This document shows positions 15,335 through 38,555 of a stretch of 46,218 nt of DNA, one piece after another (position 1 is the stretch's first letter; each line of letters begins with the position of its first letter). A model generated the notes under the pieces. That model did no database searches. It was not told where the DNA came from and was given only the letters and a program-made list of their open reading frames with translations. Source of the DNA: Desulfurococcaceae archaeon (GTDB lineage: Archaea; Thermoproteota; Thermoprotei_A; Sulfolobales; Desulfurococcaceae); contig JAPWUD010000011.1 of assembly GCA_028275705.1 (NCBI GenBank), positions 1 to 46,218 of the forward strand, written 5' to 3'. A program made the translations under genes and the position numbers.

Positions 15335-15456
15335 TTGAAAAGAGGAGCTGACTTCCTCCCCGCACTAACGGGCGAGGGTTCCTGCTAGGGCGGGGAGGTT
15401 TGGGATTACATCCCCTCTTCTTGAGGGTTCAATCCCGGGCTGGGTCTCCAGCCCAT
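15335..15456 (-). ncRNA. Candidate omega (right-end) RNA of the tnpB element
   Basis: The 3' end of tnpB and the sequence after it are GC-rich and fold strongly, as in right-end RNAs that guide TnpB nucleases. Stems seen on either strand: GGGCTGG/CCAGCCC (15437-15454), GGGAT/ATCCC (15402-15414), and CCTC-CCCG/CGGG-GAGG with one bulge (15355-15377), whose loop holds the tnpB stop codon. GAGGA/TCCTC (15342-15358) competes with the last stem and is followed by TTTT on the minus strand. TCAA at 15335-15338 resembles cleavage-site sequences of the family. Transcription and exact ends are unproven. Confidence 0.5.
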
Positions 15457-16627
15457 TACCCCTATCCCTCTCGGGACTCGGGGTTATGAGTATGTTGTAT
15501 GCTCCTACTAAGTCCGCATTAAATACTTTATTCAGTCTTGTGCATTTGAATAATCCACGCTTAACTCTACTGCCACATCTCTCTCCATGAATCGGGCACT
15601 TGGATGATGTGTATGCCTCGCTTACGTAGACTACTGTTATCCCATACTCTTCTGCAACTTCGTGGATTCTCCTCAGTAGGTAGCCATATGTCCATACATG
15701 GACGTTGTTGAAGTCTCCGTTCTCCTGGGCAATATATTTAGGATAGCCGACCTTCACGACTGAGACTCCCACGCTATAAAGCCACTCAATAGCCTGTCTA
15801 ACCCTCGAGTCAATATAGGCTTTGACCCGTCTCCTCCACTTGGAGTACATAGACCTAAGCCTTCTAGAAGTCTTCAAACCGTATTTATTCAACATAGACT
15901 GATATTCAGCAATTCTCAATCTCCAATAGTGAGATACAGCTTTCAATGGTTTGCCATTAACAAGCTTCGCCAAACCACTCTCGACGTATATAGCCACCAA
16001 GTTATTAATGCCGATATCGGTACCTGCTACTAGATTACCTCTCGGTTTCCCCGGGACACTAACCCAAACTCCTCTAACTGTCTTCTCTAACACCTCGAAT
16101 GATATGTGAACATACCACTTCCTCCTGTCTTGGTCGTAGTGTATTTCTAATCTACCCCGCTCCCCCTTCAAGTGTATTAAGCCCTTGTATTTCAGCTCTA
16201 TCCATCCAATAGCTCCCAGACCCTTGAGAACTATTTTATCGCCCTCTACCCTATACTGGTCTTTCCTTAGGACAGTCCATAGAGTCCTCTTATTGTTTTT
16301 CTTCTTGTAGCCTGGCGGGTTAACCCTCGTAATGAATGGTGGCAGTCTACTCTCTTTCTTAAGCTTTAGTAGCTTGAAGAAGCTCCTCCACGCCTCATCA
16401 TTCTTATTCAAAACGTGCTGTGCTGTGGCAGAACCTATGAGCATCTTATACTTCTCGTAGTATTCTTTATATGTTGCATTGAGGTCTACTCCCCTCTTCT
16501 CGAAGAACATCCTCCTCTTAGCGTAGTTCGCCTCATTCCACAGCTTGGAGGATAAACCACAGAGTAGCTTCAGCTTCTCCTCAGAGCTTTTATCAACTAC
16601 AAGCTCTACTATGCTTGTCCTCTTCAT
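15365..16627 (-). CDS. tnpB: TnpB-family protein (IS605 OrfB) with atypical RuvC/zinc residues
   Basis: TnpB proteins are RNA-guided nucleases carried by IS200/IS605 elements and ancestors of Cas12. RuvC-I is AGTDIGINNLVAIYV with Asp204. RuvC-III is FNADLVGAYNIL with Asp372. At the RuvC-II position, where most TnpB have E-D-L or E-N-L, this protein has VVKVGYPKY with no acid; the nearest is Glu302 in AQENG. The zinc ribbon is also altered: Cys344 and His347, then Cys351, and a lone Cys362 in FKCTRLNK. The 420-residue length is full. ATG at 16627 overlaps the tnpA stop as ATGA; a GTG 15 bases upstream is less likely. This GYP-type branch seems to occur in other crenarchaea. Confidence 0.92.
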   Translation of the reverse strand: MKRTSIVELVVDKSSEEKLKLLCGLSSKLWNEANYAKRRMFFEKRGVDLNATYKEYYEKYKMLIGSATAQHVLNKNDEAWRSFFKLLKLKKESRLPPFITRVNPPGYKKKNNKRTLWTVLRKDQYRVEGDKIVLKGLGAIGWIELKYKGLIHLKGERGRLEIHYDQDRRKWYVHISFEVLEKTVRGVWVSVPGKPRGNLVAGTDIGINNLVAIYVESGLAKLVNGKPLKAVSHYWRLRIAEYQSMLNKYGLKTSRRLRSMYSKWRRRVKAYIDSRVRQAIEWLYSVGVSVVKVGYPKYIAQENGDFNNVHVWTYGYLLRRIHEVAEEYGITVVYVSEAYTSSKCPIHGERCGSRVKRGLFKCTRLNKVFNADLVGAYNILITPSPERDRGNGLETQPGIEPSRRGDVIPNLPALAGTLAR

Positions 16628-16833
16628 CCCTCTTTCTCCCACTGCTCCTCAACGTACTTCTTAACGATGTCGGCTGTCACTTTTCCAACTGTTGCTACGA
16701 AGTAGCTCCTACTCCACAACTTCCCACGGACGGCACCCGTCTTCAGCCCTGGAAACCTCTGCAGTATTCTCCTAGCACTCTTCCCCTTAAGATAGTTCAC
16801 GATATAGGCTGGAGAGTGCCTTGGAGGTGAATC
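16624..16833 (-). pseudogene. tnpA: tnpA (Y1 transposase) remnant, 5' half deleted
   Basis: The minus strand encodes about 69 residues matching the C-terminal half of IS200/IS605 TnpA: SPAYIVNYLKGKSARRIL, then GKLWSRSYFVATVGKV and IVKKYVEEQ. The last segment carries the catalytic tyrosine and the glutamine four residues after it. The HUH motif and everything before it are missing: an in-frame TAG lies ten codons upstream of SPAY and no start codon precedes the homology. The TGA stop overlaps the tnpB ATG. The protein would be inactive even if made. Confidence 0.85.
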
Positions 16834-37000: not shown

Positions 37001-37070
37001 ACCACCAGAGTACCTATAAGTCTACAGGGGCTGTTTCGGTCTTCATAATCATTTGTAGCATTCATATTCA

Positions 37071-38138
37071 TTAATGTCTAAGACCTCTCAGGGCTATTAG
37101 GTATGCCGATGCTGTGTGCCTATCTAGTCCATACTTCTTCATGAGTTCACCGTGTTCTCTGGAGTTTGTTGTTCCCTTCGGGTCTACGAGGAGTGCTCTG
37201 AGCCCGTATTTTAATGCCATTACAACGCCGTGCTGTATTAACTGCTTCTTAGCGAACCGATTTATTTTCCTATTAGCTTTCTTGCTTCTTGTAAACCTCT
37301 TTCTTTTGACTGAGAGAAGATTTTCGAAGACGACGACGCTAACACCGTGTCTATGGCAATACTTTAGTAGTCTCGCTAGTGCATTAAGCCTCAACGCCTT
37401 CGCCTTCTCTCTTGGAAAACCATGGGAGGTTGCCTCGGGAAACCACGCTGTCCTAACATCCACTATTTCCCCATGCTCGTCGATGATCACAAGGTTCACC
37501 CTATCGCTGTTCAAGTCGAAGCCTGCGATGAGTCTTCCCCTAGCCTCCCCCTCCTTGAAGTATTTGAGGTAGAGCTGGATTAGAATCGAGAGGTGTAGGT
37601 ATATGTCGCCTTCTCTAAAAACTATTCTAGCCGTATAGCTCAGCTTCTTCTGCTTTGCAAAGTCTACTAGCTCCCTGAGTAGTGAGAGGTATTTCTCCCC
37701 GAACTCGGCTTGTAGCGTTATCCACGAACCGTTATATGGGTACTTGACTTTGACAAGGCATGTATCCTCTAGTCTCACGTTTCTATTCCCAAGCCTCGAA
37801 GACTCTCCTTCACTAACTATGAAGGGCTTCTTTACCTCCATGTTCAGTGGATTGCCACCATTGAATACACATCCCTCCACCATTGCCTTGGCTGCCTTGT
37901 ATGCTGAGTCAGCGTATGCTTTGTTCAGTACTCTCCTGAGTTCTCTGAGGACGCTGTTTTCTTCTAGCCCCCTAGCGATCATTCTAGTGGCTACTTGAAC
38001 AGCTCTTCGGAAATCCCATGCAAGTCTTACTAAACGCATATAGTCCTCGCTCGAGACTGGATATACCCTGCCAATAATAGTTACGTAGTTCACTATTGAG
38101 GATGCATCTACAATACTACTTGTCTGGCACCGTGACAC
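37071..38138 (-). CDS. TnpB-like protein, RuvC triad intact, zinc finger absent
   Basis: A 355-residue relative of TnpB/IS605 OrfB. RuvC-I: IAGFDLNSDRVNLVII with Asp208. RuvC-II: VSVVVFENLLSVKRKR with Glu272, followed by a very basic stretch. RuvC-III: GLDRHTASAYLIAL with Asp339. The zinc ribbon normally found between II and III is missing; DPKGTTNSREHGELMKKYG bridges the gap. The acidic triad suggests nuclease potential. There is no tnpA, no right-end hairpin after the stop and no target duplication seen, so it looks settled in the chromosome. It starts at GTG 38138, overlapping the upstream 48-residue gene by 23 bases; GTG at 38093 is an alternative. Confidence 0.87.
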   Translation of the reverse strand: MSRCQTSSIVDASSIVNYVTIIGRVYPVSSEDYMRLVRLAWDFRRAVQVATRMIARGLEENSVLRELRRVLNKAYADSAYKAAKAMVEGCVFNGGNPLNMEVKKPFIVSEGESSRLGNRNVRLEDTCLVKVKYPYNGSWITLQAEFGEKYLSLLRELVDFAKQKKLSYTARIVFREGDIYLHLSILIQLYLKYFKEGEARGRLIAGFDLNSDRVNLVIIDEHGEIVDVRTAWFPEATSHGFPREKAKALRLNALARLLKYCHRHGVSVVVFENLLSVKRKRFTRSKKANRKINRFAKKQLIQHGVVMALKYGLRALLVDPKGTTNSREHGELMKKYGLDRHTASAYLIALRGLRH

Positions 38139-38262
38139 GGATTACCACCAATCTCCTATGTAGGTGTCTCATCTTCTCACTCAGCTCCTTGGGTATGTAG
38201 ATGCAGAGAAGCCCGTGACTAGTCTTTGAAACCCTGGCGTGAAACACATACTCCTCCGGCAC
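38116..38262 (-). CDS. 48-residue AbrB-like protein coupled to the TnpB-like gene
   Basis: A small frame beginning GTG at 38262, with GGGAGAAGC just upstream as ribosome binding site, and ending TAG at 38116. The protein reads PEEYVFHARVSKTSHG followed by LLCIYIPKELSEKM and LVVIRVTVPDK. The strand, IPKEL turn and strand order is like the swapped-hairpin AbrB/SpoVT DNA-binding fold (compare IPKEIREKL in that family); this is inference from pattern only. Its 3' end overlaps the TnpB-like gene by 23 bases, so the two are translated from one mRNA. It could control the divergent promoter 30-40 bases upstream. Confidence 0.68.
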   Translation of the reverse strand: MPEEYVFHARVSKTSHGLLCIYIPKELSEKMRHLHRRLVVIRVTVPDK

Positions 38263-38287
38263 GCTTCTCCCTCATCAGAATACCGCA

Positions 38288-38304
38288 GAAAAGCTTATAA
38301 GGCT
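38288..38304. promoter_or_regulatory. Palindromic, probably bidirectional TATA element
   Basis: AAAAGCTTATAAGGCTTT contains the palindrome CTTATAAG. In the rightward direction it is an AAGCTTATAAGG TATA box about 25-28 bases before the structured RNA. Leftward it is AAGCCTTATAAGC, about 35 bases before the GTG of the 48-residue gene. Both distances fit archaeal initiation. Confidence 0.6.
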
Positions 38305-38322
38305 TTCCATAATCATTAATTA

Positions 38323-38530
38323 AGTGGTAGGGATGAACTCTGTGAGCTAGACGAGGGGGACTCTGAGGTAGCCGTCTTCGGCGATGGGAGCCGGGGATGA
38401 GCCACTAGGCAACTAGTGGCAACCACTCCCGTAGCACGGGGACGGCCTCGAAAGAAGCCGTTGAGAAGTAGATGGTGGAGAGCTGGAATCAATGAGCATG
38501 AAGGACAATGAACCACCATCTACCGAGAAA
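38323..38530 (+). ncRNA. GC-rich structured RNA of unknown family
   Basis: About 200 bases markedly richer in G and C than the neighbours and full of perfect stems: GCCG-TCTT-CGGC (38371-38382); GGGAG/CTCCC (38386-38390 with 38426-38430) enclosing an 8-bp stem closed by a GCAA tetraloop (38401-38420); ACGGC/GCCGT (38442-38461); and an 11-bp stem GTAGATGGTGG/CCACCATCTAC (38468-38523). The GNRA-type loop exists only on the plus strand, and a TATA box lies at the right distance upstream. It lacks the conserved segments of RNase P RNA, SRP RNA and C/D or H/ACA sRNA. It may be a free RNA or a long leader of the next gene. Confidence 0.6.
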
Positions 38531-38555
38531 CGGTTATTCTAAATAGGGGGCTTGG

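What the first reader, a model, noticed from the sequence alone, without database searches (positions are those of the whole stretch)
37071..38555. TnpB-like nuclease, AbrB-like mini-protein and divergent structured RNA: possible domesticated RNA-guided system
Three parts sit around one palindromic TATA region. Leftward is a 48-codon AbrB-like frame overlapping a TnpB relative that keeps the RuvC triad (Asp208, Glu272, Asp339) but has lost the zinc ribbon. Rightward is a GC-rich, strongly folded RNA of about 200 bases. There is no tnpA, no right-end hairpin after the tnpB-like stop, and no visible element boundary. TnpB nucleases normally use an RNA from their own 3' end; a separate, divergent RNA would be a new arrangement. 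The link between RNA and protein is inference.
Basis: partly seen in the sequence, partly recalled or inferred. Interest (0 to 1): 0.8.

Follow-up and report, generated by a model that had tools for sequence, protein, structure and literature searches.

The report
Jumping gene with back-to-back guide RNA
This is a mobile DNA element of heat-loving archaea that carries a TnpB-like RNA-guided cutting enzyme and, back to back with it under its own promoter, a structured RNA that looks like its guide; in the TnpB systems I found described the guide comes from the end of the enzyme's own gene, so this decoupled layout, conserved across many archaea, appears new.

Summary
The three parts are real, but they form a mobile element, not a domesticated locus. 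Element: window 37029-38533 (1.5 kb), bounded by GG. A sister species has the empty site with a single GG. GG ends and insertion at (G)GG are IS607 hallmarks; tnpA is absent inside, but IS607 transposases are in the genome. The TnpB-like protein keeps the RuvC triad, lacks the zinc ribbon and folds like Cas12f/TnpB. The RNA ends exactly at the right end, after which every copy differs, as in TnpB guide RNAs; its helices covary strongly. In 49 of 80 relatives, mostly Thermoproteota, the RNA lies upstream and divergent; once downstream on the same strand. The canonical 3'-end position is unstructured. These TnpBs form one clade apart from sampled canonical ones. Short copies (255-406 bp) keep both ends plus the RNA, usually with a promoter, without intact tnpB. 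RNA expression, binding and guided cleavage are untested. Verdict: new variant of IS607/TnpB (OMEGA) elements with a separately promoted, divergent guide-like RNA.

The parts
37029..37070 (.). Left end (LE) of the element: GG|CTGTTTCGGTCTTCATAATC...; the GG core is 37029-37030
   Evidence: Shared by short copies whose upstream flanks are unrelated; the empty site in G006 has a single GG here
37071..38138 (-). TnpB-like RuvC nuclease, 355 aa, D208/E272/D339, no zinc ribbon; its 3' end points to the LE
   Evidence: ORF; clade alignment; AlphaFold2 pLDDT 87.6; Foldseek to Cas12f and TnpB
38116..38262 (-). 48-aa conserved small protein (AbrB-like by eye) overlapping the tnpB start; perhaps an autoregulator
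   Evidence: ORF; conserved beside tnpB in over 20 relatives, about 40-94% identical; no family hit
38287..38308 (.). Near-palindrome AGAAAAGC-TTATAA-GGCTTTC centred on a TATA box placed to serve both divergent transcripts
   Evidence: Sequence; CAGAAAAGCTTATAA..TTTCTG recurs in relatives; TATA-like motifs peak 20-40 nt upstream of the RNA model match
38325..38534 (+). Divergent structured guide-like RNA; its 3' end coincides with the element's right end. Model match 38331-38534; 5' start inferred from the TATA box
   Evidence: Fold z -4.3; covariation; R1 match 184.7 bits
38457..38461 (+). Terminal stem, 5' strand GCCGU, pairing with ACGGU at 38530-38534
   Evidence: 97.2% of cells paired in 75 RNAs; 4 of its 5 pairs show changes on both sides (helix 4)
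38468..38523 (+). Right-end hairpin GUAGAUGGUGG...CCACCAUCUAC, separated from the terminal stem by a GA-rich internal loop
   Evidence: Individual folds of copies from different RNA groups; 3' ends listed
38524..38533 (.). Right end (RE) CGAGAAACGG; the GG core is 38532-38533
   Evidence: Constant in copies with unrelated flanks; the empty site has one GG followed by TTATTC
38534..38555 (+). Variable sequence just 3' of the scaffold: predicted guide (host flank), first base a pyrimidine
   Evidence: Differs in every copy; first base T/C in 48 of 49 distinct insertions; guide role inferred

Best explanation
An IS607-type mobile element without its own transposase. It carries a compact, zinc-ribbon-less TnpB-like RuvC nuclease, usually with a 48-aa partner in this sub-clade, and, divergently from a shared TATA region, a structured RNA that ends exactly at the right end. 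Proposed mechanism: RNA polymerase starts at the RNA's own promoter and reads through the right end into host DNA, giving a scaffold plus a guide copied from the insertion site. The nuclease binds this RNA in trans and cuts DNA carrying (R)GG followed by the guide sequence, that is, the empty site left after excision or on a copy lacking the element; repair from a copy that has it restores the element. A resident IS607 serine transposase moves the element, and short copies with the same ends and RNA may be kept by the same nuclease. Shown: ends, empty sites, mobility, conserved divergent order, covarying RNA, promoter-like position, TnpB fold and triad. Inferred: transcription, RNA-protein binding, guided cleavage, transposase in trans.
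For: Empty sites with one GG for four copies including the window's, matching IS607 insertion at (G)GG with GG termini and no duplication (PMC6188088). PF00239 serine recombinases in the own genome and 12 of 17 other genomes searched; autonomous IS607 elements there share LE GGCTGTT-like starts and RE ..ACAAACGG. Constant scaffold then variable flank in 49 distinct insertions. RNA covariation: 94.4% of cells paired against 74.1% shuffled and at most 58.1% slid; 14 of 17 pairs with changes on both sides. RNA upstream and divergent in 49 of 80 relatives, downstream on the same strand in 1. Element 3' end on the tnpB strand unstructured (z -0.5 to 0.8), while canonical IS607 right ends fold (z -2.8 to -6.3). 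Triad intact, Cas12f/TnpB fold. Short copies keep LE, RNA and RE, usually with a TATA-like box. IS607 TnpB target motifs reported as GGG or AGGAG/GAGGG (PMC10711439; PMC11061315) fit the (R)GG next to the LE.
Against: No expression data. No direct evidence that this protein binds this RNA. The terminal DNA must also serve the transposase, which could constrain part of the sequence near the right end. In 31 of 80 relatives no RNA was recognised upstream, through contig ends or divergence (not resolved). The first-base pyrimidine is target sequence and does not covary with its pairing partner (counts), so it may be a transposase preference. Loss of the zinc ribbon could mean altered activity.
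Confidence: 0.74

Rival explanations
1. The structured region is only the transposase-binding end of the element (DNA-level function): its hairpins serve transposition, and no guide RNA is made or used.
For: It sits at the right end and is kept in short non-autonomous copies; transposon ends must be conserved for mobilisation.
Against: The conserved structure reaches about 200 nt inward, and helices of domain 1, far from the end, covary. IS607 transposase needs only about 80 bp of end (PMC6188088), and the LE keeps only about 40-50 bp in some short copies. TATA-like motifs peak 20-40 nt upstream of the RNA. The sense strand folds better than its complement in 80% of copies.
Confidence: 0.12
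2. The RNA is a guide, but for the canonical IS607 TnpBs in the same genomes (acting in trans); the divergent TnpB-like gene is not its partner.
For: Canonical IS607 elements share the AAACGG right end and a GCCGTT motif upstream (seen); they coexist in the own genome. Right-end types seem to follow host or transposase family rather than TnpB clade.
Against: RNA and the divergent TnpB clade are adjacent in 49 of 80 loci over several orders, and the members tested have no structured RNA at their own 3' end.
Confidence: 0.09
3. A domesticated, immobile RNA-guided system serving the host, such as a regulator or defence system.
For: No transposase gene inside; intact nuclease gene next to a separate RNA.
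Against: Element ends, an empty site in a sister species at this very locus, many copies at unrelated sites, and relatives up to 86% identical in other genomes.
Confidence: 0.03
4. The RNA regulates expression of the divergent small protein and TnpB-like genes (for example by titrating the small protein) and is not a guide.
For: Shared palindromic TATA region; small AbrB-like protein beside it.
Against: It does not explain why the RNA ends exactly at the right end or why short copies keep it without the genes; one sub-clade lacks a detectable small protein but keeps the RNA.
Confidence: 0.02

Closest known systems
IS607-family elements with TnpB and right-end (RAGATH-18-derived) RNA
   Same: GG at both ends, insertion at (G)GG without duplication, TnpB-type RuvC nuclease, structured RNA running to the right end with a flank-derived 3' tail, G-rich target-adjacent motif; a kink-turn is reported in RAGATH-18 RNA (PMC11061315) and a TGATGA/GA internal loop is seen here
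   Different: No tnpA inside; tnpB points to the left end; the RNA is upstream, divergent and has its own promoter-like TATA box; no zinc ribbon; no Rfam match
IS200/IS605 TnpB with omegaRNA (ISDra2)
   Same: RuvC nuclease fold, scaffold plus flank-derived guide
   Different: IS605 uses a Y1 transposase and its omegaRNA overlaps the tnpB 3' end; the canonical IS605 copy in this window (15365-16830) ends ..TTCAAG, unlike this element
Cas12f (type V-F CRISPR effectors)
   Same: Best structural matches of the predicted protein; nuclease with a separately encoded RNA
   Different: No CRISPR array; one guide per element, taken from the insertion site
Short repeats (MITEs) of Staphylothermus marinus (PMC2678158)
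   Same: About 260-nt repeats reported as related to the region upstream of IS607 one-ORF elements
   Different: The S. marinus ORFs examined here are canonical-layout TnpBs with other ends, so those MITEs are at most a parallel

Membership tests
IS607 family (mobile element type) | GG dinucleotide at both termini, insertion at GG, no target duplication | tested here: met
   Four empty sites in G006
IS607 family (mobile element type) | Own serine recombinase TnpA | tested here: not met
   No such ORF in 37029-38533; IS607-type TnpA elsewhere in the genome
TnpB (OMEGA) nucleases | RuvC D-E-D triad | tested here: met
   D208, E272, D339
TnpB (OMEGA) nucleases | TnpB/Cas12f fold | tested here: met
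   Foldseek E 7.8e-10 to AsCas12f, about 1e-5 to two TnpBs
TnpB (OMEGA) nucleases | Zinc ribbon (CXXC pairs) between RuvC-II and RuvC-III | tested here: not met
   Absent in the whole clade alignment
TnpB (OMEGA) nucleases | Passes curated family cut-off | tested here: not met
   guided_TnpB 27.9 bits against cut-off 100
TnpB guide RNA (omegaRNA/reRNA) | Scaffold ends at the element's right end, followed by flank-derived sequence | tested here: met
   49 distinct insertions; empty sites
TnpB guide RNA (omegaRNA/reRNA) | Encoded at the 3' end of tnpB on the same strand | tested here: not met
   Upstream and divergent; 3' end unstructured
TnpB guide RNA (omegaRNA/reRNA) | Bound by TnpB and directs cleavage | not testable with these tools
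   Needs biochemistry
IS200/IS605 family | Insertion after a short motif by Y1 TnpA, IS605-type right end | tested here: not met
   GG-core insertion; ends differ from the IS605 copy in this window
TldR (nuclease-dead TnpB repressors) | Degraded RuvC triad | tested here: not met
   Triad intact

The most novel reading that the evidence does not exclude
In this archaeal lineage the guide RNA has been uncoupled from the nuclease message and given its own promoter, so that one nuclease gene serves many dispersed RNA-bearing short copies (11 RNA-model matches, two divergent-type tnpB loci, one of them broken, in the own genome): a distributed set of trans-acting guides, a possible halfway step between cis-encoded omegaRNA and CRISPR-like trans guides.
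Probability: 0.42. Interest if true: 0.86.

Novelty: new variant of a known kind. Interest (0 to 1): 0.74.

Why it matters
Described TnpB nucleases take their guide from the 3' end of their own gene, which ties guide supply to the nuclease transcript. A conserved archaeal clade that turned the gene round and gave the RNA its own promoter offers a natural experiment on how guide and nuclease became separate genes, a step needed on the way to Cas12. It also supplies compact, zinc-ribbon-less, probably hyperthermophilic RuvC nucleases that standard family models miss, and a testable account of short archaeal repeats as RNA-carrying passengers.

Tried and rejected
Rfam scan at gathering and relaxed thresholds: only chance matches near the element. 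Y1 transposase and canonical IS605 as the driver: present, but with different ends. Peptide ..STEKR (P0001) as the tail of a canonical partner TnpB: only two decayed remnants found. Staphylothermus marinus MITEs as the same family: its ORFs have canonical layout and other ends. Viral contigs: no relatives. A pairing explanation for the first guide base: not supported, because C is as common opposite A as opposite G (counts). A 3'-end omegaRNA at the left end: no excess structure. Using a gene interrupted by the element in L037 to read the junction: the left flank did not fit; comparison with sister-species empty sites worked instead. Literature searches for a TnpB with an upstream, divergent guide RNA found none; the library lacks most subscription papers and bioRxiv.

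Full report
What is there. The fold of 38323-38550 is 4.3 standard deviations better than dinucleotide shuffles, and no Rfam family matches.

It is a mobile element. A search with the RNA region found nine places in the own genome and copies in other genera and families of the order; a covariance model later found 11 matches in the own genome and 17 in G047. In the aligned copies the sequence is constant up to ..GAGAAACGG and unrelated after it. Upstream, copies share a left end GGCTGTTTCGGTCTTCAT.., which in the window lies just beyond the tnpB stop (37029). Full elements are 1,315-1,507 bp; short copies are 255-406 bp and keep left end, RNA and right end. Joining the flanks of eleven copies and searching the genus found empty sites in G006 for four own-genome copies, including the window's own site. 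The empty site reads TCTACAGA-GG-TTATTC where the window has ..GGGG[CTG...AAAC]GG-TTATTC. A single GG in the empty site and GG at both ends, with no duplication, is the reported behaviour of IS607 elements, which prefer (G)GG (PMC6188088). The 86-aa ORF is host sequence next to the empty site.

Who moves it. The element has no transposase. PF00239 serine recombinases occur three times in the own genome and in most relatives searched. Autonomous IS607 elements in these genomes start GGCTGTT.. or similar and end ..ACAAACGG. Trans mobilisation is inferred. The Y1-type IS605 elements present, including one in this window, have different ends.

The protein. Sequence models see it only weakly (NCBIfam guided_TnpB 1.4e-6, below cut-off; no significant Pfam hit). 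Twenty-four relatives share D208, E272 and D339, the last nearly invariant (L182 has N), and none has a zinc ribbon. AlphaFold2 gives pLDDT 87.6, and the best PDB matches are Cas12f and Cas12k, followed by ISFba1 TnpB (an IS607 TnpB) and ISDra2 TnpB. In a maximum-likelihood tree the divergent-type proteins form one side of a branch with 100/99 support against IS607 and IS605 TnpBs of the same or related genomes; branches are long, so deep placement is unsure.

The RNA. A model from 18 copies was used to collect 79 matches. Over 75 distinct rows, 94.4% of cells pair (74.1% shuffled, at most 58.1% when slid), 14 of 17 pairs change on both sides and no shuffle reaches the observed scores. That alignment was fitted to the structure, which favours it; the slid controls were counted on the same alignment. 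Seventy copies fold with a mean z of -5.1, better than their complements in 80% of cases. The terminal stem next to the variable tail changes type between elements (GCCGU/ACGGU, AGCGU/ACGCU). TATA-like motifs peak 20-40 nt upstream of the model start. In 49 distinct insertions with an ACGG-type end, the next base is a pyrimidine in 48, while positions 2-8 are near background. Empty sites show that this base belongs to the target, so it may be a transposase preference; it does not covary with its partner. In ISXfa1, an IS607 TnpB, the nucleotide flanking the right end is reported to be part of the guide RNA scaffold and the target motif is GGG (PMC10711439).

The layout. In the first 61 genomes every significant RNA match beside a clade member lay upstream and divergent; one distant, weak same-strand match (L078, E 0.8) is at chance level. 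A scan of 84,980 species genomes gave 142 relatives; the best 80 come from Desulfurococcales, Caldivirga, Vulcanisaeta, Thermocladium, Metallosphaera yellowstonensis and MAGs labelled Bathyarchaeota, Baldrarchaeota, Geoarchaeota and Nezhaarchaeota. In 49 of these 80 the RNA is upstream and divergent, in one upstream on the same strand, in one downstream on the same strand (L191, a locus with several copies). Some of these loci are the same as those. On the tnpB strand the last 200 nt of four elements show no excess structure (z -0.5 to 0.8), while canonical IS607 right ends in related genomes do (-2.8 to -6.3). For canonical IS607 TnpBs the RNA is described downstream of the gene (PMC11061315).

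How it most likely works. The RNA is read from its own promoter through the right end into host DNA; the nuclease binds it and cuts RGG-plus-guide targets, that is, empty sites, so that repair copies the element back. This is the reported model for TnpB (my knowledge and the papers cited), here with guide and nuclease as two divergent genes. The short copies keep the RNA and, mostly, a TATA-like box without the gene, which suggests use of the nuclease in trans. Transcription, binding, cleavage and trans action are not shown.

Novelty and limits. I found no description of a TnpB with an upstream, divergent guide RNA, but the library is incomplete. Short repeats related to IS607 one-ORF elements were reported in Staphylothermus marinus (PMC2678158); the three ORFs of that genome examined here have canonical layout.

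Noticed in passing
window 15365-16830: A second, unrelated TnpB element on the minus strand: canonical IS605 TnpB (425 aa) with a truncated Y1 TnpA and a ..TTCAAG right end.
   Followed up: partly
L031:2497-2558 (G000:C34) and L036:2511-2573 (G047:C32): The same right-end sequence forms the last codons (..MKGDEPPSTEKR*) of a decayed ORF with no other relative in 117 genomes of the order; possibly the tail of a canonical TnpB sharing this right end.
   Followed up: partly
upstream of tnpB in the sub-clade without the 48-aa gene (e.g. L122, L123, L124, L126, L256): Short palindromes (CAAGGCTATAGCC, GGGGATATACCC, GGGGAATCCCC) lie near the RNA's TATA box; possible operator sites.
   Followed up: no
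RNA 3' domains, e.g. L050, L182, L221: A TGATGA motif faces GA on the other strand of the internal loop next to the terminal stem, resembling a kink-turn or box C/D motif; L7Ae binding would be worth testing.
   Followed up: no
L198 (Bathyarchaeota MAG) and L190 (Caldivirga sp. MU80): Relatives 60% and 73% identical in distant archaea, the first with an RNA nearly as close to the model as the window's (172 bits): horizontal transfer or, for the MAG, mis-binning.
   Followed up: no
   Followed up: partly
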